A stretch of 64,000 bases of DNA from Rhodopseudomonas palustris. Its GTDB lineage: Bacteria; Pseudomonadota; Alphaproteobacteria; Rhizobiales; Xanthobacteraceae. Of this stretch, positions 4,279-37,136 are shown piece by piece. Each line of letters opens with the position of its first letter. Positions within the stretch are counted from its first letter, which is position 1. The stretch lies in NCBI GenBank assembly GCA_016215605.1, contig JACRJB010000007.1, positions 62,001 through 126,000 of the forward strand, written 5' to 3'. A model generated the notes under the pieces. The model did no database searches, had not been told where the DNA came from, and saw only the letters and a program-made list of their open reading frames with translations. The translations under genes were made by a program, and so were the position numbers.

Positions 4279-6381
4279 TTACTCCGCGGCAGCGGCCGTC
4301 TCGCCCCGCATCCGCCGCACGTCCGGCGGCGTCGCTTCGTCCACCAGCGCAGCAATCGCCTCGTCGGTCGACATCACCGTCTGCCGCTCGCTGCCGAGGC
4401 GGCGGACGGAGACGGAGTGCGTCTCGGCTTCCTTCTTGCCGACCACCAGCAGCGCCGGGACCTTGGCGAGCGAATGCTCGCGCACCTTGAAGTTGATCTT
4501 CTCGTTGCGCAGGTCGATGTCGGCGCGGAGGCCGGCCTTGCGCAGCGCGGCGAGCACCTTCTGGGCGTAGTCGTCGCCTTCCGACGTAATCGTGGTGACG
4601 ACCACCTGCACCGGCGCCAGCCACAGCGGGAAGTTGCCGGCGAAGTGCTCGATCAGGATGCCGATGAAGCGCTCCATCGAGCCGCAGATCGCGCGATGCA
4701 CCATCACCGGCGCCTTCTTGGCGCCGTCGGCGTCGATGTAGAACGCGCCGAACCGCTCCGGCAGGTTGAAGTCGACCTGCGTGGTGCCGCATTGCCAGTC
4801 GCGGCCGATCGCGTCGCGCAGCACGTATTCGAACTTCGGCCCGTAGAACGCGCCTTCGCCCGGGTTGATCTCGGTCTTGATCCGGTTCGAACCCTGCGCC
4901 TTGATCTCGCTGAGCACGGTGGCCATCACGCGCTCGGCGTGATCCCACATCTCGTCGGTGCCGACGCGCTTGTCGGGCCGGGTCGAAAGCTTCACGGAGA
5001 GTTCGCCCTCGAAGCCGAAGTCCGAATAGGTCGACAGGATCAGATCGTTGATCTTGAGACACTCGTCCGCGAGCTGCGCCTCGGTGCAGAACACGTGGGC
5101 GTCGTCCTGGGTGAAGCCGCGCACCCGCATTAGGCCGTGCATCGCGCCCGACGGCTCGTAGCGATGCACCACGCCGAACTCCGCCATCCGCAGCGGCAGG
5201 TCGCGGTAGCTCTTCAGGCCGTGCTTGAAGATCTGCACGTGGCCCGGGCAGTTCATCGGCTTCAGCGCGAACCAGCGCTTGTCCTCGGCGTCCTCGCCGG
5301 CGGACTGCGCCGCGAACATGTTCTCGCGGTACCAGTCCCAGTGGCCGGAAGTCTCCCACAGCACCTTGTCGAGGATCTGCGGCGCGTTGACCTCGTCGTA
5401 AGCGCCGGCGAGGCGGCGGCGCATGTAGGCCACCAGCGACTGGAAGATGCTCCAGCCCTTGGCGTGCCAGAACACGACGCCGGGGCCTTCCTCCTGGAAG
5501 TGGAACAGGTCGAGCTCGCGGCCGAGCCGGCGATGGTCGCGCTTCTCGGCTTCCTCGATCTGCTTCAAGTAAGCGTCGAGGTCTTCCTGCTTGGCGAAGG
5601 CGGTGCCGTAGATCCGGGTCAGCATCGGGTTGTTGCTGTCGCCGCGCCAATACGCGCCGGCCACCTTCATCAACTTGAACGCGGTGCCGATCTTGCCGGT
5701 CGAGGTCATGTGCGGGCCGCGGCACAGATCGAACCAGTCGCCCTGCTTGTAGATCTTGATGGTCTGGTCGGCCGGGATCGCGTCGACCAGCTCGACCTTG
5801 AACATCTCGCCATTGTCGGCGAACACCTGCTTGGTCTGGTCGCGGGTCCAGATTTCCTTGGTGAAGGGTTTGTCGCGCTGGATGATCTCGCGCATCCGCT
5901 TTTCGATCGCCGCGAAGTCTTCGGGCGTGAACGGCTCGTTGCGGAAGAAGTCGTAGTAGAACCCGTTCTCGATGGTCGGGCCGATCGTCACCTGGGTGCC
6001 CGGCCACAGGCTCTGCACCGCTTCGGCGAGCACGTGGGCGCAGTCGTGCCGGATCAGCTCCAGCGCGCGGGCGTCGTCGCGGGCGACGAAATCGATCGCG
6101 GCGTTCTCCTCGATGCCGTCGGCGAGGTCGGTCAGCACGCCGTTCAGCGCCATCGCCACGGTGCGCTTGGCCAGCGACGGCGAGATCCCCTTGGCGATCT
6201 CCAGCCCGGTGGTGCCGCGCGGATAATCGCGGGTCTTGCCGTCCGGGAAGGTGACGGTGATCTGCGCGGCGTTCACCGCCGGCTTGAGGTTGGACAGGGT
6301 GAATTGAAAGCTGGAGCCGGCGCCCTTGTCGGCGGCGGACTTGTCGGCGGAGTTCTTGTCGGAAGCGGGCTTGTCGGTCAT
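4279..6381 (-). CDS. thrS: Threonyl-tRNA synthetase
   Basis: 700 residues. The start at 6381 ([10 protein letters not shown]) has AGAGGAG 6 nt upstream. Order: a Lys/Ala/Asp/Ser-rich extension (about 1-35) that is unusual for the enzyme, a TGS domain (about 39-99), the editing domain with HDCAH (H112, H116), the class II catalytic core with [30 protein letters not shown] and [13 protein letters not shown], then the anticodon-binding domain (APVQVVV...[15 protein letters not shown]). It charges tRNA-Thr with threonine and edits Ser-tRNA-Thr in the cytoplasm. All core motifs are intact. The 145 nt before it hold only a short inverted repeat and then the left copy of the MFS repeat. Confidence 0.98.
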
Positions 6382-6528
6382 GTCGTTCTCCTCTGGCTCA
6401 CTCCTGCACACGAGCGCAGGTAAGCGGACGAGCGATATAGCAGCCGATTCCAGGGATGCAAGAAAGCTGCGGCGGTTTCCGGGCCGTGGCGCCGGCAAAA
6501 TCGGCCCCGCCGGCGGCCGTCAAATTTT

Positions 6529-6542
6529 AATGCACATGCATT
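6529..6542. promoter_or_regulatory. Palindrome AATGCA-CA-TGCATT (left copy), candidate operator
   Basis: A perfect 6-bp inverted repeat with a 2-nt spacer, 24 nt before the GTG start of the MFS fragment and duplicated in front of the intact gene at 9868. The form fits a dimeric regulator (MarR or TetR type). No regulator gene is adjacent, so the partner is unknown. Confidence 0.45.
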
Positions 6543-6565
6543 GAAATCCTGCTAGACCTCGTCGG

Positions 6566-6753
6566 GTGTCCCGCAAGCTTGCTCCCTCCGCCCTCATGCT
6601 CGGCAATTTCGTCACCGGCACCTCGGTTCTGGCGCCGGCCGGGATGTTGCCCGAGCTGTCCGCCGGACTCGACGTCGGCATTCGCGACGCCGGGCTGCTG
6701 ATCACCTTCGGCGCGGTGGTGCTGTGCATCGGCTCGCCGCTGTCGGCGTGGCT
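6566..6753 (+). pseudogene. Orphan N-terminal fragment of MFS exporter
   Basis: Encodes the first 62 residues of the MFS protein that is complete at 9905 (MSRKLAPSALMLGNFVTG onward, through the first transmembrane helix). It then runs into unrelated sequence and stops after about 28 foreign codons. Two residues differ from the intact copy (Ser8 for Thr, Asp36 for Gly); the other five base changes are silent. It is a remnant of the original gene, or a hitch-hiking allele, left at the insert boundary. Confidence 0.85.
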
Positions 6754-6784
6754 CAACTCATTGAGTGGCTCGAAAAAAGGTGAA

Positions 6785-9748
6785 CTACACTCGAATGGGC
6801 ATGTTTTGGGCAGGCCGCTTCTCGCCTGCAATTTGTAAAAGATCCGAAATTTCCTTTTGCATCATTCGAAAATCGGACCTATCGACTTTTGCTGATGCGT
6901 CGCTAAGCAGCTTGTTTGCCTCGTCCAATTTTCGCCGATCTCCGGTGTGCGAAACGGACGTTGCCGATAGAGGATGATACGAGAAATAGTCGCCCAGAGC
7001 AATTCTAGCCCACTGCAACTGTATCTCGACGAGTCTCAATAATTGGGGGCCGACCTCAGCAATTGCTGTGGCTTCGGCTAGGTCACGAGCAGCGCGTTCC
7101 CAGTCACCCAGGTAGGTTCGAAATCGAGCTCGGCTCAGATAGGCTATCGTTAGATAGTCAGCGATTCCGGAGCTCCTGGCTCTTGCTATCGAATTGTTGA
7201 ACATCTCTTCCAAGGCAATCATCTTGTCGGATGCCAAGAGGTGGTGGTCGGGGTCTTCGTTCTCAATTGCGCGCCCGAGAAGCGCTCGGGCTGCGATTGT
7301 TGTCGAGCATCCATGTGACAATGCGGGTAGTCTATCCGAAAGCCTCTCGATGTCTCGGCAGGTTGATTCTGCTTCTTGCCATCTCCTCTGGTGAAGTAAA
7401 ATTTCGCATTTTGTCTGAAGGTAGCCCGATCGAACGGCCGCCAAGTCTATCGGGAAGCGATGATCGAGCAAATCCATTAGTCGTTGTACCTCTGACGTGT
7501 TGTCCTCCAAAAATCGTAGTATCAACGTGGAAGTGTGGGCCAATTGAACGGCAGTAGAATTTCCGGCTGCTTGAATTGCTGCAGTATTAGCAGTCGTTGC
7601 CATTAATCTTGCCTCGGTGACTTTTCCGATAGAGATTAGGATGCGAACTAGATTGCTAGCTATTGCTGCTACGTCAGCCGCAGTTTGCGGCAATTTTTTT
7701 GCTGTTCCTATAATCTCGCTTAGGGCGCTTCTTAAAGTTCTTTCCGCATCGGTATTTCGTCCCAGATTTCCAAGCAGTGACGCTGTCATGACGAGCAGCT
7801 GAAGTTTTGCCGCGCGCTCAATGTTCCTGGTCTTAATAAAAGGAGTCACGAAGAAAAGAGAAAGAGTTGCAAGGTCGGTTGAGGCCAAGCCGAGTACTTC
7901 ACAAGAGTACCCCGTAGATCTTGATATCCGGCCTTGGTAGATTTGATAGAAGGCTTCGTCTAAGAGGCCTGCTTTGCAGGCGTGGCCTATTGCTTGATAA
8001 AGAGGTTGTAGGGAGCTCGCAGTCGGCTGTTCTCCTTCGAAGGTGTTTAGTTTTAGGTAGCGGAAAAGCGTAGTATGGGCGCGCTTCCATGTGTTCTTAT
8101 CGCGCGCTTGCAGTCTACTCGCGAACCAGTCCCGAATTAGAGGGTGCGTATCCAGGTCTGAGGGGGAAAATCTGTCAATTGGCGCAATCAAACGAACTTC
8201 TCGTAGAGCAGAAATGGCATCGAGCCACTCGTTGCTGCTTAAATTTCTAAGTGAGCCAGCCTGAGGGATAGAGAATTCTTTCTTTAATTCTTCCACTAGT
8301 TCCGCTTTTGCGGGGCGGTCAAATATTGCAATAATATCCATTGTTGCTTGCAAAAGAGGTTGGTTTCTCAGCCATTCTGCTTCAATGGACCGCATCACGC
8401 GTTTTGCGTGTCCATGAACGGCTTCATCAGTCGTTTGGGCGCTCTCCGTGAGAAGTGGCCCTATGCAGTCACGTCGGCGGACATCGCCAGCGTGACGACG
8501 CACCAAGTAGCCCGCGAGAAGGCTAAGTGCCAATGCGTGACCTCCAAATTCTTGCGAAGCGTCTTCCAGTTCAGTTTTGCTGCCGATTACGTCGTTGTCT
8601 GCAAGCAGTTCGCCCCCCGCCTCATTCGAGAGGCGTTCAAGCTCGACAACTGGAGATGATCCGGCGACGATGGCAAATCGACCAAGATCCTTTATTTTGA
8701 GGCGGGACGTCAGCACGACGAGGCCTAACGTGCTTTGTTGCGGCTCAGCTGCGAAGCGCTTGAGAAATCGTTTGAGACCAACGTCTTTAAGGAATCCTTC
8801 CTCTGGCCCCGGACCAAATTGTAAGGGTTCGACACCGTCGAGTATGAGGAGTACTCTTCTCCCTTTCAGTTCGCAGGATAGAAGTTCACCGCGCTGATCA
8901 GCATCCGCCGGGAAGTCACGAAGTCCAAGTGCGTTGAGCGACCATTCGAAAAAAAGATCAGCAGAACTTGCGCGCTCTTTTGTTCCTTGATCATAGAATG
9001 ACCACCCGAGAACGGCTTCAGCTCCACGATAGTTATCCCGTTGAATTCTCGCGAGCCAGTCGTTGACAAGGGTGGTTTTTCCTGCGCCTCCCCAGGAAAT
9101 AAGAGACAGAATGTTGACGCCTCTCTGGTCCCAAGCGCTGTTCAATGTCTGTATCTCTGTCTCGCGGCCAACGAGCCGTTTGTAAGCTGTCTCTGGCAAG
9201 CGGGCGATGTCGAGAATTGGAGACCTTATGCCTTCCACCGGTGTGCCAGCGTTTGGCTGAGAATGGCCGAAAGTGCGAATTTCACGTGCAAGGTCGGCCA
9301 TTACTGCGTTTCGTTGAGGCTCGTTATACAATTCGAGAGCCTTGCCATCGCGAGGCCTGAGATTGAATCTCAGCAACCATTCCGCTGCGCCGAAGTCGCA
9401 AGCAGAGAGAACAATAGGAAAGAGTCGTACCCCCTTCTCTTGGTGGCGCTCCAAGATAGTCTTCATTTCGACGTCGAGAATGAAGCGCGATGTGAGTGAA
9501 TGGCGGGATACAAGCAGTATGCAAATGTCACAATCCCTTAGGGAGTCGTCGATTTCCCGTCGCCAATCACCGCCCCCTTCTATGGATCGGTCGTCCCATA
9601 CCTTTATGTGCTGATGAGCTTGAGCAGGGCCAAGGTGGGATTTGATGTATGTGAGCCACCTTGGAGCTGCCGTGTCAGAGACGGCATCCCCTTCGTCTTT
9701 GTGGCTATAGCTGATGAAAATTCTCGGTGTTGGCGACTTCTGAAGCAT
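6785..9748 (-). CDS. TIR-STAND-TPR protein (NLR-like antiviral candidate)
   Basis: 987 residues. A TIR domain occupies about 8-160: RIFISYSHKDE, VWDDRSIEGGGDW, ILLVSRHSLTSRFILDVE, with Glu94 in the position of the TIR NADase catalytic Glu. A STAND NTPase follows: Walker A GGAGKTTL (220-227), Walker B LLILDGVE (301-308), a TSR sensor (347-349) and GGHALALSLLAGYL (402-415) where NB-ARC proteins have GxPLA. The C-terminal half (about 520-980) is helical with TPR-like repeats such as GDWERAARDLAEATAIAE. In bacterial NLR-like defence proteins this layout means ligand sensing by the repeats, ATP-driven assembly and NAD+ depletion by TIR; that role is inferred here. The gene is much richer in A/T than its neighbours, stands alone on the opposite strand, and lies between 227-bp direct repeats. 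No good ribosome binding site is seen, but the TIR domain begins directly after this start. Confidence 0.9.
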   Translation of the reverse strand: MLQKSPTPRIFISYSHKDEGDAVSDTAAPRWLTYIKSHLGPAQAHQHIKVWDDRSIEGGGDWRREIDDSLRDCDICILLVSRHSLTSRFILDVEMKTILERHQEKGVRLFPIVLSACDFGAAEWLLRFNLRPRDGKALELYNEPQRNAVMADLAREIRTFGHSQPNAGTPVEGIRSPILDIARLPETAYKRLVGRETEIQTLNSAWDQRGVNILSLISWGGAGKTTLVNDWLARIQRDNYRGAEAVLGWSFYDQGTKERASSADLFFEWSLNALGLRDFPADADQRGELLSCELKGRRVLLILDGVEPLQFGPGPEEGFLKDVGLKRFLKRFAAEPQQSTLGLVVLTSRLKIKDLGRFAIVAGSSPVVELERLSNEAGGELLADNDVIGSKTELEDASQEFGGHALALSLLAGYLVRRHAGDVRRRDCIGPLLTESAQTTDEAVHGHAKRVMRSIEAEWLRNQPLLQATMDIIAIFDRPAKAELVEELKKEFSIPQAGSLRNLSSNEWLDAISALREVRLIAPIDRFSPSDLDTHPLIRDWFASRLQARDKNTWKRAHTTLFRYLKLNTFEGEQPTASSLQPLYQAIGHACKAGLLDEAFYQIYQGRISRSTGYSCEVLGLASTDLATLSLFFVTPFIKTRNIERAAKLQLLVMTASLLGNLGRNTDAERTLRSALSEIIGTAKKLPQTAADVAAIASNLVRILISIGKVTEARLMATTANTAAIQAAGNSTAVQLAHTSTLILRFLEDNTSEVQRLMDLLDHRFPIDLAAVRSGYLQTKCEILLHQRRWQEAESTCRDIERLSDRLPALSHGCSTTIAARALLGRAIENEDPDHHLLASDKMIALEEMFNNSIARARSSGIADYLTIAYLSRARFRTYLGDWERAARDLAEATAIAEVGPQLLRLVEIQLQWARIALGDYFSYHPLSATSVSHTGDRRKLDEANKLLSDASAKVDRSDFRMMQKEISDLLQIAGEKRPAQNMPIRV

Positions 9749-9865
9749 TGGGAATCACTGTTTGATCAAATCTTGCGAATGGAATGAGCCAAAGATAATA
9801 GGCCCATTTCGAGTGAATCCAAGGCGTCGCTTGGCAAAGTGGGAGTGCGAGGTGGTTGCTGAAAG

Positions 9866-10092
9866 TTAATGCACATGCATTGAAATCCTGCTAGACCTCG
9901 TCGGGTGTCCCGCAAGCTTGCTCCCACCGCTCTCATGCTCGGCAATTTCGTCACCGGCACCTCTGTTCTGGCGCCGGCCGGGATGTTGCCCGAGTTGTCC
10001 GCCGGGCTCGGCGTCGGCATTCGCGACGCCGGGCTGCTGATCACTTTCGGCGCGGTGGTGCTGTGCATCGGCTCGCCGCTGTCGGCGTGGCT
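9866..10092 (+). repeat. Right 227-bp direct repeat (MFS promoter and 5' end)
   Basis: Partner of 6527-6753. This copy is continuous with the rest of the MFS gene and supplies its promoter region, start codon and first transmembrane helix. The sequence between 9749 and 9865 belongs to the insert and contains an imperfect inverted counterpart (9802-9815) of the extreme 3' end of the TIR-STAND gene (6788-6800). Confidence 0.95.
9868..9881. promoter_or_regulatory. Palindrome AATGCA-CA-TGCATT (right copy), candidate operator
   Basis: Identical to the site at 6529, here 24 nt upstream of the intact MFS start. It is the natural candidate for repression or activation of the exporter gene. The regulator is unknown. 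Confidence 0.45.
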
Positions 10093-11059
10093 GACCTCCA
10101 GGATCGACCGCCGGCTGCTGCTGACGGCGACGCTGCTGGTGCTCGCGCTCGGCAATCTCGTCTCGGCATTGGCGCCGAACTACGCCGTGCTGCTGCTGGC
10201 GCGGCTGGTGATGCTCGCCGTCGGCGCGCTGTACACGCCGCAATCGGCCGGGACGGTGGCGCTGATCGTGCCGCCGGAGAAGCGCGGCGGCGCGATGGCC
10301 TATGTGTTTCTCGGCTGGTCGCTGGCGGTGGCGCTCGGCGTGCCGCTGGTCACCTTCGCGGCCAGCCATCTCGGCTGGCGCGAGGCCTATGCGGTGGTCG
10401 GCGCGATCGGCCTGGTGGCGTTCGCGCTGCTGTGGGCGCGGCTGCCCGGCGGGCTGCGCGCGGCGCCGGTCGATCTCAAGACCTGGGCCGCGGTCGGCCG
10501 CAACCGCCGCATCCTGGCGCTGCTCGGCGTGTCGTCGCTGCAGACCTCCGGGCAGTTCGTGGTGTTCACCTATTTCGGGCCGCTGCTCACCGGGCTGACC
10601 GGCGCCGGCCCCGCCGAGATAGGCCTGGTGTTCGCGCTCTACGGCGTGTTCGGCTTCGTCGGCAGCGTGATCGCCAGCCGGATCGTCGACCGCTGGGGCT
10701 CCTACAACACCTCGGCGCTGTTCACGTCGCTGATGCTCGCCGGCATCGTCGGCTGGAGTTTCGGCGCCGGGCAATTCGCCGTGATGGCGGCGGCGGTGGC
10801 GGTGTGGGGACTCGGCTTCGCGGCGTCGAACTCGATGCAGCAGGTGCGGCTGCTGACCGCCGATCCGGCGCTCGCCGGCGCCAGCGTGTCGCTGAACACC
10901 TCGGTGCTCTACATCGGCCAGGCGATCGGCTCGGCGGTCGGCGGCGTGCTGTATGCGGCCGGCCTGCTGCAGGTCAACGGCTACGTCTCCACCGCGATGA
11001 TGGCGCTGGCGCTCTGCGTGCTGCTGATCGCGACGCGGGAGAACAAGCGCGCGGTCTGA
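9905..11059 (+). CDS. MFS efflux transporter (DHA1, AraJ/YdhP-like)
   Basis: 384 residues with about 12 hydrophobic helices. The N-terminal half has the drug-proton antiporter pattern (LSAWLTSRIDRRLLL after TM2, LLARLVMLAVGALYTP, PPEKRGGAMA, LGWSLAVALGVPL). It probably exports a sugar, purine or drug across the inner membrane by proton antiport; the substrate is not readable. The start is the GTG at 9905. No clear ribosome binding site precedes it and an ATG at 9935 is an alternative. The first 188 nt of the gene and 39 nt upstream are duplicated at 6527, so the insertion of the TIR-STAND segment left this copy complete. Confidence 0.9.
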   Translation: MSRKLAPTALMLGNFVTGTSVLAPAGMLPELSAGLGVGIRDAGLLITFGAVVLCIGSPLSAWLTSRIDRRLLLTATLLVLALGNLVSALAPNYAVLLLARLVMLAVGALYTPQSAGTVALIVPPEKRGGAMAYVFLGWSLAVALGVPLVTFAASHLGWREAYAVVGAIGLVAFALLWARLPGGLRAAPVDLKTWAAVGRNRRILALLGVSSLQTSGQFVVFTYFGPLLTGLTGAGPAEIGLVFALYGVFGFVGSVIASRIVDRWGSYNTSALFTSLMLAGIVGWSFGAGQFAVMAAAVAVWGLGFAASNSMQQVRLLTADPALAGASVSLNTSVLYIGQAIGSAVGGVLYAAGLLQVNGYVSTAMMALALCVLLIATRENKRAV

Positions 11060-11446
11060 GGCCGTCCGGTCGCAGGCCGCACGCGCCGCGAGCCAGCGGC
11101 CGAGGCGCGTGGCCAGTCCCAGCAGCAGCCGTCCGGCGACGAGAAACGGCAGCGCCGCCGGCGGCGCATGCAGTGGCAGGCCGGCGGCTAACGCGATCAG
11201 CGCATCGGCGAATTGAAACGCCAGATGGCGCAGGGCGGCGCGCAGCGCGCCGCGGTCGAGAGCAAGCTTAGAGAAGACATGTGTCGTGAGGAAAGCCACA
11301 GCGGTCTCCAGGCTGTTCCTCGATCGACCGGAGGCGGCACGCAGCGCACTCCGATCGCGAGGATCGTCGAGTGCGTTGCCTGACGTCGAACGCTTACGGC
11401 CAGCGGGACTGGCGCATACCGCCCGCGAGGCGCGGGCGGGGAGAGA
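11060..11446. other. 387-nt stretch without a supportable gene
   Basis: Between the MFS stop and the convergent methyltransferase stop. An open frame on the minus strand begins at 11299 with a hydrophobic start, but it continues antisense through the whole MFS gene and has no ribosome binding site, so I do not call it. No repeat or terminator is clear. Confidence 0.5.
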
Positions 11447-31201: not shown

Positions 31202-31334
31202 TTGCGGCGCGCGCCTGCGCTCCACCAGAGTTCTTCGCAGCCAGCACCGCGCGCACCTCTCCCACGCGGCAGGGGATTCGCATGTCAGCTCCCGCCCGGT
31301 GTCGATCAGCGACTTGGGCCCTACCTCTCCGCCC

Positions 31335-31453
31335 GTCGTCCCCGCGCAGGCGGGGACCCATACGCCGCCGCCTCTCGAGGCAAGCCCGGGGGCAGTGGCC
31401 TTGCTACACTTGCAAAGCCAGGGGCTATGGGTCCCCGCCTGCGCGGGGACGAC
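31335..31453. repeat. 119-bp palindromic repeat, family A copy 1
   Basis: Both ends are inverted copies of about 28 bp (GTCGTCCCCGCGCAGGCGGG... and its complement). Each arm is itself a hairpin (CCCCGC-GCAG-GCGGGG). Same length as the copies at 33374, 36500 and 36796; the core differs in this copy. Confidence 0.92.
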
Positions 31454-31516
31454 TCGTTGCGGATGCAGCGGCCCCTCCGCGAGCTGATGCGCGTCGCCGC
31501 GACGAGCACTGCGCAA

Positions 31517-31680
31517 CCTCTCCCCGCGCGCGGGGAGAGGTCGGCGCGCATCGCCAGATGCGTGCCGGGTGAGGGGGCGTCTCGACGCGGCCGAGCGATC
31601 GTGCTGAACGACGGCCGATCCGCGTCGCAGCCGCTGCAGCCCCTCACCCCAACCCTCTCCCCGCAAGAGCGGGGCGAGGG
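31517..31680. repeat. Palindromes of family D
   Basis: Contains a perfect 24-bp palindrome CCTCTCCCCGCG/CGCGGGGAGAGG at 31517-31540 and a related interrupted one (CCCTCTCCCCGC-AAGA-GCGGGGCGAGGG) at 31653-31680, with GGGTGAGGGG and CCCCTCACCCC motifs between them. Confidence 0.75.
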
Positions 31681-31790
31681 AGCGCGCCGTGCGTGGGGCG
31701 AGGTCATCGCTTATCAGCGGCATCGCGGGCCAGCATCAGCAGACCAGCATCGACATCCGCAAGCCCATCTTCGAACTAACACCTCGCGTC

Positions 31791-31957
31791 ATCCTCATGG
31801 TGAGGAGCCCCGGCGAAGCGCAGCGCCGCCGGGCGTCTCGAACCATGGGCGACGCGCGCGCGGCGCCGGCGGATACGCGCGGCCATCCTTCGAGACGCGA
31901 TCCTTCGAGACGCCGCGCTTCGCCCTGCGGGCAAAGCCCGGCTCCCCGGGATGAGGG
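31791..31957. repeat. Mosaic palindromic repeat, family C copy 2
   Basis: Carries ATCCTCATGGTGAGGAGCCC, GGGCGTCTCGAACCATGG, CCATCCTTCGAGACGC and CCCGGGATGAGGGG. The last three repeat-rich kilobases (31202-32159) contain no gene that I can support; this element, families A and D and short spacers make up most of it. Confidence 0.82.
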
Positions 31958-32159
31958 GCACGCAAGCTGTTAGTTCGACGATCGACTCGCGGAAGCGATG
32001 AGCTCGCTTACTCCCCGCCTTCATGTCCATCGGTTTCCGCGCCGTTAACGAAACAGCAACAAACCCAACCGGTTATGGTGAACCCTTTGTTAAGCGTCAT
32101 GGTTTACGAAGTATGACGTCAGGCATCGCGTCGCGGTGTCGTTGGTTGCGTAAGCCGGA

Positions 32160-33335
32160 ATGCCCATGATCGTTCGGCAGTTCATCAGTTGGATCCGTCA
32201 CGCGCCCGCGGGCGAGCGTGCAGAGGCGACCCGGGCGCTGGCCCGGGCCTGGCTGATCTCCGATCTCACCCCCGACGATCGCGCCGCCGCCGAAGGCGCG
32301 CTGCTGATGATGCTCGACGACGTCTCGCCGCTGGTGCGCCAGGCGATGGCGCAGGTGTTCGCCCGCAGCGCGCACGCGCCGGCCGCGATCGTCCGCGCGC
32401 TCGCCGCCGATCAGCCCTCGGTGGCGCTGCCGGTGCTGGAATTCTCGCCGCTGCTGATCGACGCCGATCTGGTCGACATCGTCGCCACCGGCGACGACGC
32501 GGTGCAATCGGCGATCGCGCGCCGCGTCCGGCTGCCGGCCGCGGTGTGCGCGGCGATCGCCGAAGTGGGCAGCGCCTCCGCCGCGCTGGAACTGATCGAA
32601 AATCCGCACGCCGAACTGGCGCCGTTCTCGTGGGACCGCATCGTCGAGCGCCACGGCCATCTCGCCGCGATCCGCGAGTCGATGCTGGTGCTGGAGGATC
32701 TGCCCGGCGCGACGCGGCTGGCGCTGGTCGCCAAACTGTCCGACACGCTGCAGCAATTCGTCGTGGCGCGCGGCTGGCTGACCGCCGATCGCGCGGCGCG
32801 CGCCACCGCCGAGGCGCTCGACCGCTCCACCGTCGCGGTGGCGGCGCGCTCGCGCGGCGACGACATGGCCGCCCTGATGCGGCATCTGCGCGCCACCCAG
32901 CAGCTCACCGCCGGGCTGATCCTGCGCGCGCTGCTGTCCGGCAATCTCGAATTGTTCGAAGCCGCGCTGGTCGAACTGTCCGGCCTGCCGCAGGCCCGCG
33001 TCGCGGCGCTGCTGCATGCCCGCGGCGGCACCAGCCTGACCGCGCTGCTGACGCGCGCCGGCCTGCCGGAGACGACGTACCCTGCGTTCCGCGCCGCGCT
33101 CGAGGCGATCCACGAGATCGGCTTCGTCGGCAGCGAGAACGGCGCGGTGCGGCTGCGCCGGCTGATGGTCGAACGCGTGCTGACCCGCTGCGAGACCGCC
33201 GCCGATGCCGCGGCGCCTCTGCTGATCCTGCTGCGCCGCTTCGCCACCGAATCGGCCCGCGAAGACGCCAGCGCCTTCTGCGGCGAACTGATCGCCGACC
33301 ATTCCGTCTGGCGCCCGGATCTGATCGCGGCTTAG
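32160..33335 (+). CDS. DUF2336-family protein
   Basis: 391 residues, alpha-helical throughout with HEAT-like character (ALLMMLDDVSPLVRQAMAQVFARS, then repeated helical pairs). The N-terminal FISWIRHAPAGERAEATRALARAWL and central LPVLEFSPLLIDADLVDIV are typical of DUF2336 proteins, which are restricted to alphaproteobacteria and whose function is unknown. An ATG two codons downstream is an alternative start. The gene lies between repeat clusters on both sides. Confidence 0.85.
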   Translation: MPMIVRQFISWIRHAPAGERAEATRALARAWLISDLTPDDRAAAEGALLMMLDDVSPLVRQAMAQVFARSAHAPAAIVRALAADQPSVALPVLEFSPLLIDADLVDIVATGDDAVQSAIARRVRLPAAVCAAIAEVGSASAALELIENPHAELAPFSWDRIVERHGHLAAIRESMLVLEDLPGATRLALVAKLSDTLQQFVVARGWLTADRAARATAEALDRSTVAVAARSRGDDMAALMRHLRATQQLTAGLILRALLSGNLELFEAALVELSGLPQARVAALLHARGGTSLTALLTRAGLPETTYPAFRAALEAIHEIGFVGSENGAVRLRRLMVERVLTRCETAADAAAPLLILLRRFATESAREDASAFCGELIADHSVWRPDLIAA

Positions 33336-33373
33336 CTGATTGTCGGACGCAGCGTCCGCTGCCTCCGCAACAC

Positions 33374-33492
33374 GTCGTCCCCGCGCAGGCGGGGACCCAT
33401 ATCCCCTGGCTTCCCAAGTGAAGAAAAGCCTCTGCCACGGTGCTTGAATCGAGCAGCTGCGGCGTATGGGTCCCCGCCTGCGCGGGGACGAC
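33374..33492. repeat. 119-bp palindromic repeat, family A copy 2
   Basis: Same arms and same length as the other A copies. Its core (ATCCCCTGGCTTCCCAAGTG, then AGAAAAGCCTCTG) is close to those at 36500 and 36796. It starts 39 nt after the DUF2336 stop. Confidence 0.92.
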
Positions 33493-33586
33493 AGCGGATA
33501 GGCCACGGCCGAACGCCGATCGAGATTGCGCCGCCGGCCGACGCCGCTACACTTTCACCGGAGCCGCACATCCTTTGGCGTCGGCG

Positions 33587-33874
33587 ATGGCCTACTACGT
33601 CTACATGCTCGCGAGCGGGAAGCACGGCACGTTGTATCTCGGCGTGACCAACGATCTTGTGCGCCGCGTGTACGAGCATCGCAGTCACGCAGTGCCCGGG
33701 TTCACGTCGCGCTACGACGTCGGCGCGCTGGTGTGGTTCGAAATCCACGATGATGCGATCGCTGCCATCACGCGCGAGAAGCAGTTGAAGAAGTGGCGGC
33801 GCGAATGGAAAGTGCGATTGATCGAGGCGGAGAATCCGGATTGGATAGATCTGTATCCGGAGATCGCTCGCTAG
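33587..33874 (+). CDS. GIY-YIG nuclease-superfamily protein
   Basis: 95 residues. YYVYMLASGKHGTLYLGVTNDLVRRVYEHR gives the GIY-YIG pair (as YVY...YLG), the catalytic Arg region and the following helix. FTSRYDVGALVWFEIHDD and REKQLKKWRREWKVRLIE complete the stand-alone URI/UPF0213-like form found widely in Rhizobiales. These small proteins are thought to be endonucleases, but their role is unknown. The gene is tightly boxed in by repeats: family A copy 2 ends 94 nt upstream and a half copy of family B begins 12 nt after the stop. Confidence 0.9.
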   Translation: MAYYVYMLASGKHGTLYLGVTNDLVRRVYEHRSHAVPGFTSRYDVGALVWFEIHDDAIAAITREKQLKKWRREWKVRLIEAENPDWIDLYPEIAR

Positions 33875-33886
33875 CACGGGGGTTAT

Positions 33887-33928
33887 GGATTCCGGGTTCA
33901 CGCGCTGGCGCGCGTGCCCCGGAATGAC
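33887..33928. repeat. Half copy of family B repeat
   Basis: ATGGATTCCGGGTTC to GTGCCCCGGAATGAC is the right half of the family B palindrome. It starts 12 nt after the GIY-YIG stop. Confidence 0.75.
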
Positions 33929-34005
33929 GGTGGGTGGGGCTCGACGCGCGGCGACGGCGCGCGCAACGCGGCGACGCGCCCGACTACTTCGCGACGCACG
34001 CCCGA

Positions 34006-34584
34006 CTACTCCCCCGGCGCGATGCTCGGGGCCAAAATGGCGTCGAGGTGGTCGGGGCGGTCGCGGTTGACGGCGGCGAGGTAGTCGTCGGCGACGCCGC
34101 GCAGCTTGCGGTTCAGCGCGCGCTGCAGCTCGGCCTTGTCGGGCGCGCCGCCTTCGCGGACCATCGCCTGGATGGCGTGGACGTGGTTGGCGATCAGTTC
34201 GTCCGGCACCGCGGCGAGATCCGGCGCGTGCTCGATCACCCGGCACAGGCTGAAGGCGGCGTCGGCGGCGGCCGGATAACCGAACGTCGCAGCGTCGCCC
34301 TTGATGTCGTGCGCGGCGCGGAACAGTTCGTCCTTGGTGGCGCGGCTGACGCCGTCGCGCGCGAGCGCCGCATAGGCCGCCGACAGCCGGTCGCACTCGA
34401 CGCCCATCCACTGCGCGAATTCGCCGGCGAGCTCGGCCAGCGCCTGTTCGGCGCGCGCCACCGAATCGTCGACCTGCGCGTCCTCGACCCGGCGCAGCAC
34501 CTTGCGCAGCGGATTGGCCTGGGTGATCACCTGATGGTCGGGAAAGGTCGCGACCTGGATGTCCTCGGGGCGTTTGCGGCTCAT
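34006..34584 (-). CDS. Hpt-domain phosphotransfer protein
   Basis: 192 residues. FRAAHDIKGDAATFGYP contains the phosphorylatable His (H92) of a histidine phosphotransfer domain. The N-terminal 60 residues (RPEDIQVATFPDHQVITQ...) are of the type seen in alphaproteobacterial chemotaxis or cell-cycle phosphorelay Hpt proteins. It begins 4 nt after the response-regulator gene ends, so the two are translated from one message and probably form a phosphorelay pair. The kinase is not in the window. Confidence 0.9.
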   Translation of the reverse strand: MSRKRPEDIQVATFPDHQVITQANPLRKVLRRVEDAQVDDSVARAEQALAELAGEFAQWMGVECDRLSAAYAALARDGVSRATKDELFRAAHDIKGDAATFGYPAAADAAFSLCRVIEHAPDLAAVPDELIANHVHAIQAMVREGGAPDKAELQRALNRKLRGVADDYLAAVNRDRPDHLDAILAPSIAPGE

Positions 34585-34588
34585 GGCG

Positions 34589-35134
34589 TCAGCCTGCGAC
34601 CTTGGCCTTGTCGAGCAGCGACGGCTGCTGGATGATGTCGGCCTCGCCGTGGCCGCGCCGCTCCGGGCCGATATAGCCGCCGCCGGCGCTGCGCCGCCGG
34701 TCCGGCCCGAAGTAGTTGCGGGTCTTGATGAACGGCCGCGGGCTGGCGACGACGTTGAGCACGCGCTGATACAGCCCCTTCGACGAGATCGGCTTGGCGA
34801 GAAACTCGGTGATGCCGGCGTCGCGCGCCAGCGTCACGCGGCGCTTCTCCGAATGCGCGGTCAGCATGATGATCGGCACGAACGGGTTGGCCTTGGAGTC
34901 CGGCTGCCGGATCATCTGCGCCAGCTCCAGCCCGTCGAAGATCGGCATTTCCCAATCGGTGATGACGATGTCGGGCGCGGCGTGGCTGAAGGTCTCGAGC
35001 GCGGTGGCGCCGTCCTCGGCCTCGTAGACCTCGCGCGCGCCGAACGAATGCAGCAGCGTGCGCAGGATGCGCCGCATGTGCGGATTGTCGTCGCACACCA
35101 GGAAGCGCAGCTTGTTGAAGTCGATGCGGAACAT
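34589..35134 (-). CDS. Single-domain response regulator
   Basis: 181 residues with one receiver domain: acidic pair in VCDDNP (D15, D16), phospho-acceptor D60 in VITDWEMP, T92 in MLTAHS and K114 in LAKPIS. No output domain; the last 50 residues are an Arg/Gly-rich tail with a repeated GPDRRR/GPERRG motif. Probably CheY- or DivK-like signalling. A pair of GTTAACGA repeats lies 50-80 nt upstream of its start. Confidence 0.93.
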   Translation of the reverse strand: MFRIDFNKLRFLVCDDNPHMRRILRTLLHSFGAREVYEAEDGATALETFSHAAPDIVITDWEMPIFDGLELAQMIRQPDSKANPFVPIIMLTAHSEKRRVTLARDAGITEFLAKPISSKGLYQRVLNVVASPRPFIKTRNYFGPDRRRSAGGGYIGPERRGHGEADIIQQPSLLDKAKVAG

Positions 35135-35184
35135 GAGAAACTTCGGGCTCGTCCGGGCGCGGCGACAGAGGCGATATACCTGGC

Positions 35185-35212
35185 GTTAACGATAGGCCGT
35201 CGTCGTTAACGA
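35185..35212. promoter_or_regulatory. Direct repeat GTTAACGA with 20-bp period
   Basis: GTTAACGA at 35185-35192 and again at 35205-35212, spaced two helical turns apart, upstream of the response-regulator gene. Each contains a TTAA half-site, but the spacing is not the N7 of a full CtrA box. Candidate binding site for a CtrA-like or other dimeric regulator. Confidence 0.35.
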
Positions 35213-35265
35213 AGGGTTGCCGGGGGCGCCGGCAGCGCGCGCCGACGGTGCCCGTCTCACCCCCC

Positions 35266-35386
35266 GTCATTCCGGGGCGCTCGCGCAGCGAGCGAACCCG
35301 GAATCCAGAGGTGTTGGACCGATTCCGCCGATGCCCCGAACGTCGAGATTCCGGGTTCGCGAGCAAAGCTCGCGCCCCGGAATGAC
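35266..35386. repeat. Palindromic repeat, family B copy (complete)
   Basis: 121 bp, GTCATTCCGGGGCGCTCGCG to GCGCCCCGGAATGAC. The left 40 nt are the same as at 29821. With family C copy 3 it fills most of the 571-nt gap between the response regulator and the zinc-ribbon gene. Confidence 0.88.
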
Positions 35387-35445
35387 GCCTTTGTTGCGGA
35401 GGACTCACCATGAGTGCCGTCGCGTTCAGCGGCCACCGGCACGCC

Positions 35446-35591
35446 CCTGAGGAGCCCCGCATCGCCCGAAGGGCGTAGCGGGGCGTCTCGAAGGATGAGT
35501 TGTTCATCTCGCTCGGCTGCTGAGCCGTCCGTCGCCCATGGTTCGAGACGCCCGCCGGCGCTTCGCGCCGCCGGGCTCCTCACCATGAGGG
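35446..35591. repeat. Mosaic palindromic repeat, family C copy 3
   Basis: Blocks CCTGAGGAGCCCCGC, GGGGCGTCTCGAAGGATGAG, CCATGGTTCGAGACGCC and GGGCTCCTCACCATGAGGG in the order seen in copy 1. Confidence 0.82.
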
Positions 35592-35705
35592 CCAACTGGT
35601 CACGGCGGCCGGGCGCGCTGATTATTTCGCAGCGGGTATCGCGCTGCGGCGCGCCGCGGCGGGCGGCCGACTAACCTCGTGTTGTTACTGATTCGGAGCG
35701 CGTCG

Positions 35706-35888
35706 ATGACCACCACCCCGAACTGCCCGCATTGCAACGAGACGTTGGAGCTGGTCGGCAACCGGCCGCTGGTGCAGGGCTATCAGCTGCGCGAATATCA
35801 ATGTCCGAAATGCGAGACCAGGACCCGCGCCGCCACCCATTGGGATCATTCGCTGACCGAGCCGCACGGGCACTTCTATCACGAGTAG
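35706..35888 (+). CDS. Small zinc-ribbon protein
   Basis: 60 residues. Two Cys pairs, NCPHCNETLEL and YQCPKCETRTRA, about 30 residues apart, form a zinc ribbon, and the C-terminus has HWDH and HGHFYHE. No known family is recognised. It stands alone after a repeat cluster. Confidence 0.7.
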   Translation: MTTTPNCPHCNETLELVGNRPLVQGYQLREYQCPKCETRTRAATHWDHSLTEPHGHFYHE

Positions 35889-36103
35889 CACGCCCGCGCG
35901 GCGGCGCCGCGCGCCGCACGATCGCGCTGCAGCGCAGCACGGCGCGCTTAAGCAGCGATTAGCCATCGCCCACGATCGGTGCCGCGCCGCGCGCCGGAAT
36001 TGTCGCTGGTCATTTCCCATCGCCGCCCGACATGATTACGATCATCACCGCGGGGCCGCACCGAGCCGCCGCCGCGACGGCGAGCCGGACAGGGGGCGAC
36101 ACG

Positions 36104-36274
36104 ATGACCGACGAACTCACGGCGTTTCTGATGTTCACGATGCTGTGCAGCGCGTTTCTGATCGGTCTGATGGTGCAGTACCTGCGCCGCCTCAACCGCC
36201 TGCGCGCCACCGTGCGCGTGTTCAGCCAGGTCAACGACATGGTCCCGCAGAGGGTGCCCGCGCGGCGAGAGTAG
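36104..36274 (+). CDS. Small single-helix membrane protein
   Basis: 56 residues from MTDELTAFLMFTMLCSAFLI; GGGGGC lies 7 nt upstream. One transmembrane helix (about 8-26), then a basic segment (YLRRLNRLRATVRVF). No family recognised. A near-consensus CtrA box (TTAA-N7-TTAG, 35948-35962) lies 142 nt upstream. Confidence 0.6.
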   Translation: MTDELTAFLMFTMLCSAFLIGLMVQYLRRLNRLRATVRVFSQVNDMVPQRVPARRE

Positions 36275-36363
36275 GCAACAGCAGGCACGACTGACCGGGA
36301 CATTAGCGACGGCTGTGACGTCGCCTGATGGCGGGTGGGGCGGCCTCACGCACTCCGCGTCTT

Positions 36364-36382
36364 GGCCGGGCTCGGCCCGGCC
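36364..36382. repeat. Palindrome family F
   Basis: GGCCGGGC-TCG-GCCCGGCC, a perfect 8-bp inverted repeat at the head of a stretch (to about 36455) that looks like a further intergenic repeat family. Only one copy is seen here. Confidence 0.5.
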
Positions 36383-36499
36383 ATCCATCCATCATCTTCG
36401 AAAGATCTCTCGCAAAGCGCGATGGATCAGCGGGGCGAGTCCGGTGACGACGTCGTGTTGTGACGCGGGCTCAGTCGCACGGCAGCGCCGACGCGACGC

Positions 36500-36618
36500 G
36501 TCGTCCCCGCGCAGGCGGGGACCCATATCCCCTGGCGTCGCAAGTGAGAGAAGGCCTCTGTCGCAGGGGTTCAGTCGGGATGCTGCGGCGTATGGGTCCC
36601 CGCCTGCGCGGGGACGAC
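36500..36618. repeat. 119-bp palindromic repeat, family A copy 3
   Basis: Arms as in the other copies. First half of a tandem arrangement with copy 4 (period 296 bp), in which the following 170 nt (GTCGACAGGCAAG, GGCGAAGTCGCGC, GCGCCAGCCCCACCCCCGTC) are also duplicated. Confidence 0.92.
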
Positions 36619-36694
36619 AAGTCGACAGGCAAGGCTCAAAGGCGAAGTCGCGCCGAACGCCGCCACCCACGACGTTCGCGCCAGCCCCACCCCC

Positions 36695-36745
36695 GTCATT
36701 CCGGGGCGGGCGCAGCGAAGCTGCGCACGAGCCCGGAATCGCGAG
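36695..36745. repeat. Half copy of family B repeat in tandem unit 1
   Basis: GTCATTCCGGGGCGGGCGCA to CGGAATCGCGAG, the left half of the B palindrome with an altered core (GCAGCGAAGCTGCGC). Duplicated at 36991. Confidence 0.78.
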
Positions 36746-36795
36746 GTGAGGGGGCGGTCGCGGCCCAATTTGTTCAGCCGCTGCATCAGCCCCAC

Positions 36796-36914
36796 GTCGT
36801 CCCCGCGCAGGCGGGGACCCATATCCCCTGGCGTCGCAAGTAAGAGAAGGCCTCTGTCGCAGGGGTCCAATCGAGATGCTGCGGCGTATGGGTCCCCGCC
36901 TGCGCGGGGACGAC
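36796..36914. repeat. 119-bp palindromic repeat, family A copy 4
   Basis: Nearly identical to copy 3, exactly 296 bp downstream of it. Part of the second tandem unit that reaches about 37040. Confidence 0.92.
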
Positions 36915-36990
36915 AAGTCGACAGGCAAGACGCAAAGGCGAAGTCGCGCGCCGAACGCAGCCCCCCGCCAATCGCGCCAGCCCCACCCCC

Positions 36991-37040
36991 GTCATTCCGG
37001 GGCGGGCGCAGCGAAGCTGCGCACGAACCCGGAATCTCGA
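36991..37040. repeat. Half copy of family B repeat in tandem unit 2
   Basis: Matches 36695-36745 with a few changes. It lies 97 nt before the restriction-modification gene. Confidence 0.78.
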
Positions 37041-37136
37041 AGTGAGGGGGGCCGATCCTCCAGAACCATTGCCTCGATTGTAAGCGAATCTCGATTCGCG
37101 TAAGGCTGGCGGCGGCTCGGGGAGGCCTGCCGGCGG

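What the first reader, a model, noticed from the sequence alone, without database searches (positions are those of the whole stretch)
6527..10092. TIR-STAND-TPR defence-like gene inserted in front of an MFS gene with duplication of 227 bp of its promoter and 5' end
The 3.1-kb A/T-richer insert carries a single NLR-like gene and no integrase or transposase. The right-hand repeat restores promoter, start codon and first helix to the exporter gene; the left-hand repeat is an orphan. This is what an island that carries its own replacement 5' end would leave, or a single-crossover capture. A solitary TIR-STAND cargo with such a gene-restoring duplication may represent an undescribed way for single defence genes to spread.
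Basis: partly seen in the sequence, partly recalled or inferred. Interest (0 to 1): 0.85.

Follow-up and report, generated by a model that had tools for sequence, protein, structure and literature searches.

The report
Defence gene bracketed by duplicated gene end
A single bacterial immune-type gene sits next to an ordinary transporter gene between two slightly different copies of that transporter's front end, the likely footprint of a small imported DNA piece that slotted in by matching the transporter rather than by using its own integration enzyme.

Summary
Confirmed: 6527-6753 and 9866-10092 are direct repeats (227 bp, 7 mismatches) of the promoter and 5' end of an MFS gene. They flank 3.1 kb of lower-GC DNA with one sense gene, a TIR/P-loop protein, and no integrase ORF. 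The left copy keeps the native thrS-MFS junction; the right copy restores MFS. Among 83 related loci with thrS in view the gap is under 600 bp in 67 and holds other DNA in 16; 0 of 85 have a 5' duplication.

The copies differ mostly synonymously (5 of 7), so they probably diverged as two working alleles: imported, not made in place. Similar anatomy recurs: the 3' end of the same MFS gene in another species, and ahcY and DUF72 3' ends around single TIR genes (2 of 55 TIR neighbourhoods at the strict threshold, 0 of 80 other stretches), plus a trpS end at a looser one. Not significant alone.

Best explanation: a small DNA circle from another strain, carrying the TIR gene and an MFS end, integrated by one crossover, as seen in the laboratory. 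Decayed or trans-mobilised islands and one-sided illegitimate recombination remain open. Pfam does not support "TPR". Mobility and defence are untested.

The parts
4279..6381 (-). thrS, threonyl-tRNA synthetase (left flank, divergent from MFS)
   Evidence: ORF (start codon chosen by me at the MTDK methionine); tblastn matches to thrS next to MFS in relatives
6382..6526 (.). native thrS-MFS intergenic DNA, as in relatives without insert
   Evidence: alignment with G005 and others
6527..6753 (+). left (orphan) copy of the MFS promoter and first 188 bp of coding sequence (GTG at 6566)
6529..6542 (.). palindrome AATGCA-CA-TGCATT in the duplicated promoter, possible operator (inference)
   Evidence: sequence; TGCA-NN-TGCAT present in all 13 relatives aligned
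6753..6754 (.). novel joint: MFS codon about 63 to cargo, 31 bp beyond the TIR gene's stop
   Evidence: loss of left/right identity after 6753
6754..9865 (.). lower-GC insert, 3112 bp
6785..9748 (-). TIR + P-loop NTPase (STAND-like) protein, 987 aa
   Evidence: TIR_2 4e-12; AAA_16 1e-4, below cut-off; relatives aligned over most of the length are about 30% identical
9861..9865 (+). GAAAG upstream of the right copy: promoter variant shared with G005 and G013, differing from the left copy's AAATT
9866..10092 (+). right copy, which completes the functional MFS gene
9905..11059 (+). intact MFS transporter gene
   Evidence: MFS_1 1.7e-37; 85% identical to the nearest species found

Best explanation
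The recipient had the ordinary thrS-MFS site without insert. In another strain of the same or a very near species the TIR-STAND gene stood directly upstream of the MFS promoter. A fragment of that locus, the TIR gene plus 227 bp of MFS promoter and 5' end, entered as a small molecule of about 3.3 kb with its ends joined; the joint is 6753/6754. It integrated by one homologous crossover inside the shared 227 bp. The incoming end now completes the MFS gene, and the native end is left as an orphan next to thrS. The TIR protein probably works as an NLR-like sensor whose TIR domain consumes NAD+ on infection. Shown: the anatomy, the sites with and without other cargo in relatives, two diverged copies, no integrase ORF. 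Inferred: the circle, the crossover, the donor, the protein's activity.
For: Left copy continuous with native intergenic DNA; right copy begins within a few tens of bp of where the seven occupied relatives examined resume MFS homology and carries a different promoter variant. Differences between copies are mainly synonymous: 5 of 7 here; 27 of 35 pooled over four such duplications, p=2e-9 against random change, so they look like alleles that diverged as working genes. Mirror event in G001: 300-bp 98% copy of the MFS 3' end around a 280-aa gene. Similar anatomy at ahcY (L201) and DUF72 (L220), each around one TIR gene, and trpS (L304, looser threshold). In E. coli, DNA with one homologous end gave the duplication PCR product in 56 of 60 clones; 14 were sequenced, with duplications of 109-950 bp, ascribed to single crossovers (PMC3240628, passages read).
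Against: No circle, donor locus or genome of the same species was seen. The precedent concerns conjugated plasmids, not natural fragments. Cargo trimmed to 31-188 bp around the gene in three cases is tidier than random fragments would give. With seven differences the synonymous bias here alone is modest (p=0.03), and the pooled p treats changes as independent. Gene-end repeats around TIR genes are not significantly enriched.
Confidence: 0.48

Rival explanations
1. Remnant or trans-mobilised island: the repeats are attL/attR of a site-specific element whose integrase is lost or supplied in trans (like cis-mobilizable elements, recalled), with the 227 bp as the usual replacement gene end.
For: Same anatomy as gene-end islands (recalled); cases at 3' ends of ahcY, DUF72 and trpS; an island without its own recombinase and with imperfect repeats is mobile in E. 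coli (PMC5426353).
Against: No integrase ORF in three compact one-gene inserts; the same joint was not seen elsewhere (0 of 85 MFS loci; 0 of 10 congeneric ahcY loci at >=90 bp and >=85%).
Confidence: 0.2
2. One-sided homologous, one-sided illegitimate recombination (HFIR) of a linear fragment, or template switching between sister chromosomes.
For: Explains one homologous and one illegitimate end; proposed for T6SS gene arrays in V. cholerae (PMC5361080, passages read).
Against: HFIR generally deletes recipient DNA (PMC3240628, passages); here DNA is duplicated. Microhomology at 6753/6754 cannot be judged without the donor.
Confidence: 0.2
3. In-place tandem duplication of the MFS 5' end, with the TIR gene inserted between the copies later.
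For: Simple; gives direct repeats.
Against: Copies differ mainly synonymously with derived states on both sides and different upstream variants; similar structures around TIR genes in other genomes.
Confidence: 0.06
4. Assembly artefact.
For: Draft assembly of 78 contigs, 2.3% contamination.
Against: Copies are non-identical, the joint lies deep inside a 167-kb contig, both flanks are native.
Confidence: 0.03

Closest known systems
H47 genomic island of E. coli (PMC5426353, part 1 of 5 read: abstract, introduction, start of methods)
   Same: No recombinase of its own; flanked by long imperfect direct repeats
   Different: A 13-kb microcin island shown to excise; here one gene, repeats are an end of a conserved gene, excision untested
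Single-crossover integration with partial gene duplication (PMC3240628, passages read)
   Same: Duplication of 109-950 bp of the homologous end beside foreign DNA
   Different: Laboratory plasmids; here a natural locus with a defence-type cargo
HFIR-type orphan arrays at V. cholerae T6SS loci (PMC5361080, passages read)
   Same: New cargo anchored by homology to a conserved stretch, old piece left as orphan
   Different: There the ancestral effector is displaced; here DNA is duplicated and the host gene is restored
Transfer hotspots without integrases, recombination at flanking core genes (PMC5635113, passages read)
   Same: Cargo between core genes, no recombinase
   Different: That model uses double homologous recombination, which would leave no duplication (inference)
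TIR-STAND (bacterial NLR-like) defence proteins (recalled as a class)
   Same: N-terminal TIR, P-loop NTPase-like part, long C-terminal region
   Different: This lineage is sparse (relatives about 30% identical) and PADLOC models matched only the TIR part

Membership tests
TIR-STAND defence protein | TIR domain | tested here: met
   PF13676 4.1e-12, above cut-off
TIR-STAND defence protein | STAND P-loop NTPase | tested here: inconclusive
   AAA_16 1.1e-4, below cut-off; Walker-like motif GGAGKT seen by eye
   best TPR family E 0.12
TIR-STAND defence protein | anti-phage activity and NAD+ loss | not testable with these tools
   needs experiment
Integrase-borne genomic island | integrase or transposase gene in the element | tested here: not met
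   only sense ORF of 80 aa or more in the insert is the TIR gene
Integrase-borne genomic island | same attachment site reused in relatives | tested here: not met
   MFS 5' duplication in 0 of 85 loci of other species
Recombinase-less island of the H47 type | extensive imperfect flanking direct repeats, no recombinase | tested here: met
Recombinase-less island of the H47 type | excision to a circle | not testable with these tools
   needs PCR
HFIR product | deletion of recipient DNA at the illegitimate end | tested here: not met
   native junction intact and MFS end duplicated
Single-crossover product | partial duplication of the homologous segment flanking the cargo | tested here: met
   227 bp
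Single-crossover product | donor circle with matching joint | not testable with these tools
   no genome of the same species or donor was available

The most novel reading that the evidence does not exclude
Single defence genes, TIR effectors above all, travel as small integrase-free units that carry the end of a conserved host gene as a homology address. One crossover inserts them, restores the gene and leaves direct repeats through which they can be lost again.
Probability: 0.15. Interest if true: 0.85.

Novelty: new variant of a known kind. Interest (0 to 1): 0.55.

Why it matters
In one survey of 80 bacterial groups, half of the gene-transfer hotspots lacked recognisable mobile elements and 27% lacked any integrase or transposase (PMC5635113, passages); how single genes arrive there is open. 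A duplicated end of the neighbouring gene is a footprint that suggests a one-crossover arrival and can be searched for in any genome. If it proves enriched around immune genes, it points to a route by which defence genes spread and are lost without mobile elements.

Tried and rejected
Close relatives of the TIR-STAND protein were sought and are rare. In the family sample, 3 of 391 genomes match at E<=1e-30, own included; class 3 of 385 and phylum 10 of 398 at E<=1e-40, own included. Genome contigs and viral-contig scans with this protein gave none. In plasmids 31 records match, none covering 80% of the query; the best 20 listed cover only 14-18%, the TIR part. No solved structure matched at E<=0.01. 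I did not check what genes stand next to the distant relatives.

L204 (52-bp, 92% repeat around its TIR gene) was set aside by eye as a dispersed GC-rich intergenic repeat. L230 (200 bp, 91%) lies beside, not around, its TIR gene. At the loosest threshold (>=45 bp, >=85%, spacing 0.8-10 kb) there were 7 pairs in the 55 TIR regions, 3 in 20 SIR2 regions, 4 in 20 matched and 3 in 40 random stretches. In the SIR2 regions L247 and L252 such pairs lie on both sides of the SIR2 gene. I judged none of these ten non-TIR pairs a clear copy of an intact gene's end, by ORF overlap only; not all were resolved, and any real one would weaken the case.

Gene transfer agents as vehicle: the GTA_TIM family is in 16 of 16 Rhodopseudomonas genomes, own included, but nothing ties it to this event; kept as a lead only.

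PMC3784515 (outline and abstract only) describes duplications of about 100-900 kb, a different scale. A search on anti-phage, illegitimate recombination and natural transformation gave one paper, on phosphorothioation and drug resistance (listing only). A six-term search on defence systems, flanking genes and homologous recombination gave none. The impression that this footprint is not described for defence genes rests only (listings and abstract starts of open-licence papers).
Full report
Observation. Two direct repeats, 6527-6753 and 9866-10092, share 220 of 227 bases. They hold the promoter, GTG start and first 188 coding bases of an MFS transporter gene. The right copy runs into the full gene (9905-11059). 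The left copy ends in codon 63 and is joined to an insert of 3112 bp with GC near 0.5, against 0.62-0.74 around it. The insert carries one sense gene, 6785-9748 on the minus strand, 987 aa.

The protein. Pfam gives TIR_2 at 4e-12 (above cut-off) and AAA_16 at 1e-4 (below cut-off); TPR families appear only at E 0.12 or worse. PADLOC matches only the TIR part. Relatives aligned over most of the length are about 30% identical and scattered through the phylum; in the family's 391 sampled genomes only two others pass 1e-30, both partial matches. NAD+ cleavage by TIR and NLR-like sensing are recalled knowledge of these families, not tested here.

The site. I took 85 MFS loci of other species: the 80 kept plus L040, L041, L044, L045 and L047. 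83 have thrS in the held DNA; the thrS-MFS gap is below 600 bp in 67 and above 1 kb in 16. MFS matches under 60% identity or 25 residues were dropped. No locus has a second MFS 5' end; only L041 (genome G001) has a second MFS 3' end. The occupied gaps hold different genes: bacteriophytochrome-GGDEF, subtilase, patatin-like, ClpP-like and others (these labels are mine from the sequences). Most of this cargo is not defence-like and has a GC near that of its surroundings. So the interval accepts varied cargo, once defence-like besides the window, without duplication in the cases seen.

Two alleles. The left copy continues into native intergenic DNA like that of G005, which has no insert. The right copy starts within a few tens of bp of where the seven occupied relatives examined resume MFS homology, and it has GAAAG upstream, as in G005 and G013, where the left has AAATT. 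Of the 7 differences 5 are synonymous, and states not seen, or rarely seen, in 13 relatives occur on both sides. Both copies share 200 of 233 bases with G012, so donor and recipient were probably of one species or nearly so. The duplication therefore most likely brought in a second, working allele.

Recurrence. In G001 the 3' end of the same MFS gene is duplicated (300 bp, 98%, 5 of 5 differences synonymous) around 1.2 kb of lower-GC DNA with a 280-aa gene, with an 88% copy of a neighbouring region at the joint. I then sampled defence-gene neighbourhoods, chosen by hand from hit lists for room on the contig, not at random: 40 regions from 139 TIR_2 matches and 20 from 59 SIR2_2 matches, fetched; and 15 from 139 TIR_2 matches (10, 5 shorter ones). 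At the strict threshold (>=90 bp, >=85%) two repeats bracket the TIR gene: L201, 141 bp of the ahcY 3' end around a TIR-AAA-TPR gene with about 64 bp either side; and L220, 93 bp of a DUF72 gene's 3' end around a TIR-FGE gene. That is 2 of 55. At this threshold there were none among the 20 SIR2 regions, none with spacing of 1 kb or more among 20 stretches taken about 40 kb away in many of the same genomes (two had closer, tandem-type repeats), and none among 40 stretches of 20 kb in G001 and G003. At a lowered threshold L304 adds 59 identical bases of the trpS 3' end around a TIR-WD40 gene and one further ORF; the controls then also show repeats, none of them a clear gene-end copy by ORF overlap. 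Fisher's test on the first 50 TIR regions against 80 others gives p=0.15 for two and 0.055 for three (the second mixes thresholds), so enrichment is suggestive at best. The chance that a repeat pair of that spacing would bracket the gene is 1.4%, 2.1% and 15% for L201, L220 and L304. The criterion 'gene end' was set after seeing the first case.

The proteins in L201 and the window are not alike by BLASTP (E 0.41), so the shared feature is the arrangement and the TIR domain, not one cargo family. Across the four duplications with differences (MFS 5', MFS 3', ahcY, DUF72) 27 of 35 changes are synonymous, about 28% expected, pooled p=2e-9. The ahcY orphan also carries a stop codon, so it is no longer coding. 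In that genus, of 10 other ahcY loci G195 has a gap of about 186 bp, nine show other DNA or a contig end downstream, often the same glycosyltransferase-like gene (my label), and none shows the duplication at the strict threshold.

Mechanism. In the window and at ahcY one copy keeps the native neighbour and the other, attached to the cargo, completes the gene. A single crossover between a small circle and the chromosome gives exactly this. Amarir-Bouhram and colleagues saw it in E. coli: 56 of 60 clones gave the duplication product, 14 were sequenced (109-950 bp) and ascribed to single crossovers of re-circularised DNA, while the other four were HFIR (PMC3240628, passages). HFIR, usually with deletion, has been proposed for V. 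cholerae effector loci (PMC5361080, passages). An island without its own recombinase and with long imperfect repeats is mobile in E. coli even without RecA (PMC5426353, part 1 of 5). Double recombination in flanking core genes, proposed for hotspots (PMC5635113, passages), would leave no duplication, so it cannot be the whole story here. Classical islands at gene ends have similar anatomy but bring an integrase (recalled); no integrase ORF is present, and the same joint was not seen again.

Verdict. Mobility, donor, circle and defence function are not shown.

Noticed in passing
L041 (G001), 9606-11423: Mirror event in another species of the genus: MFS 3' end duplicated (300 bp, 98%) around a lower-GC 280-aa gene without Pfam match, with an 88% copy (about 134 bp) of a neighbouring region at the joint.
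   Followed up: yes
L201:5288-8444: ahcY 3' end duplicated (141 bp, 91%) around a sole TIR-AAA-TPR gene; the orphan copy carries a stop codon.
   Followed up: yes
L220:7525-9945: DUF72 gene 3' end duplicated (93 bp, 87%) around a sole TIR-FGE-sulfatase gene.
   Followed up: yes
L304:7593-12293: 59 identical bases of the trpS 3' end bracket a TIR-WD40 gene and a 372-aa ORF without Pfam match.
   Followed up: partly
L042:7424-9755: Lower-GC insert at the same thrS-MFS site in G004 with a PD-Lambda-2_B-like protein and two ORFs without match in PADLOC or Pfam.
   Followed up: partly
window 31314-37050: Several 89-260 bp direct and inverted repeats (61-96% alike), perhaps a dispersed repeat family.
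   Followed up: no
G000:C13:97392-98294 and 15 genus-mates: GTA_TIM family in 16 of 16 Rhodopseudomonas genomes searched, a sign of a gene-transfer-agent-like cluster.
   Followed up: no
L247, L252 (SIR2_2 neighbourhoods): Repeats of 45-100 bp lie on both sides of the SIR2 gene, 5-10 kb apart; nature unknown.
   Followed up: no
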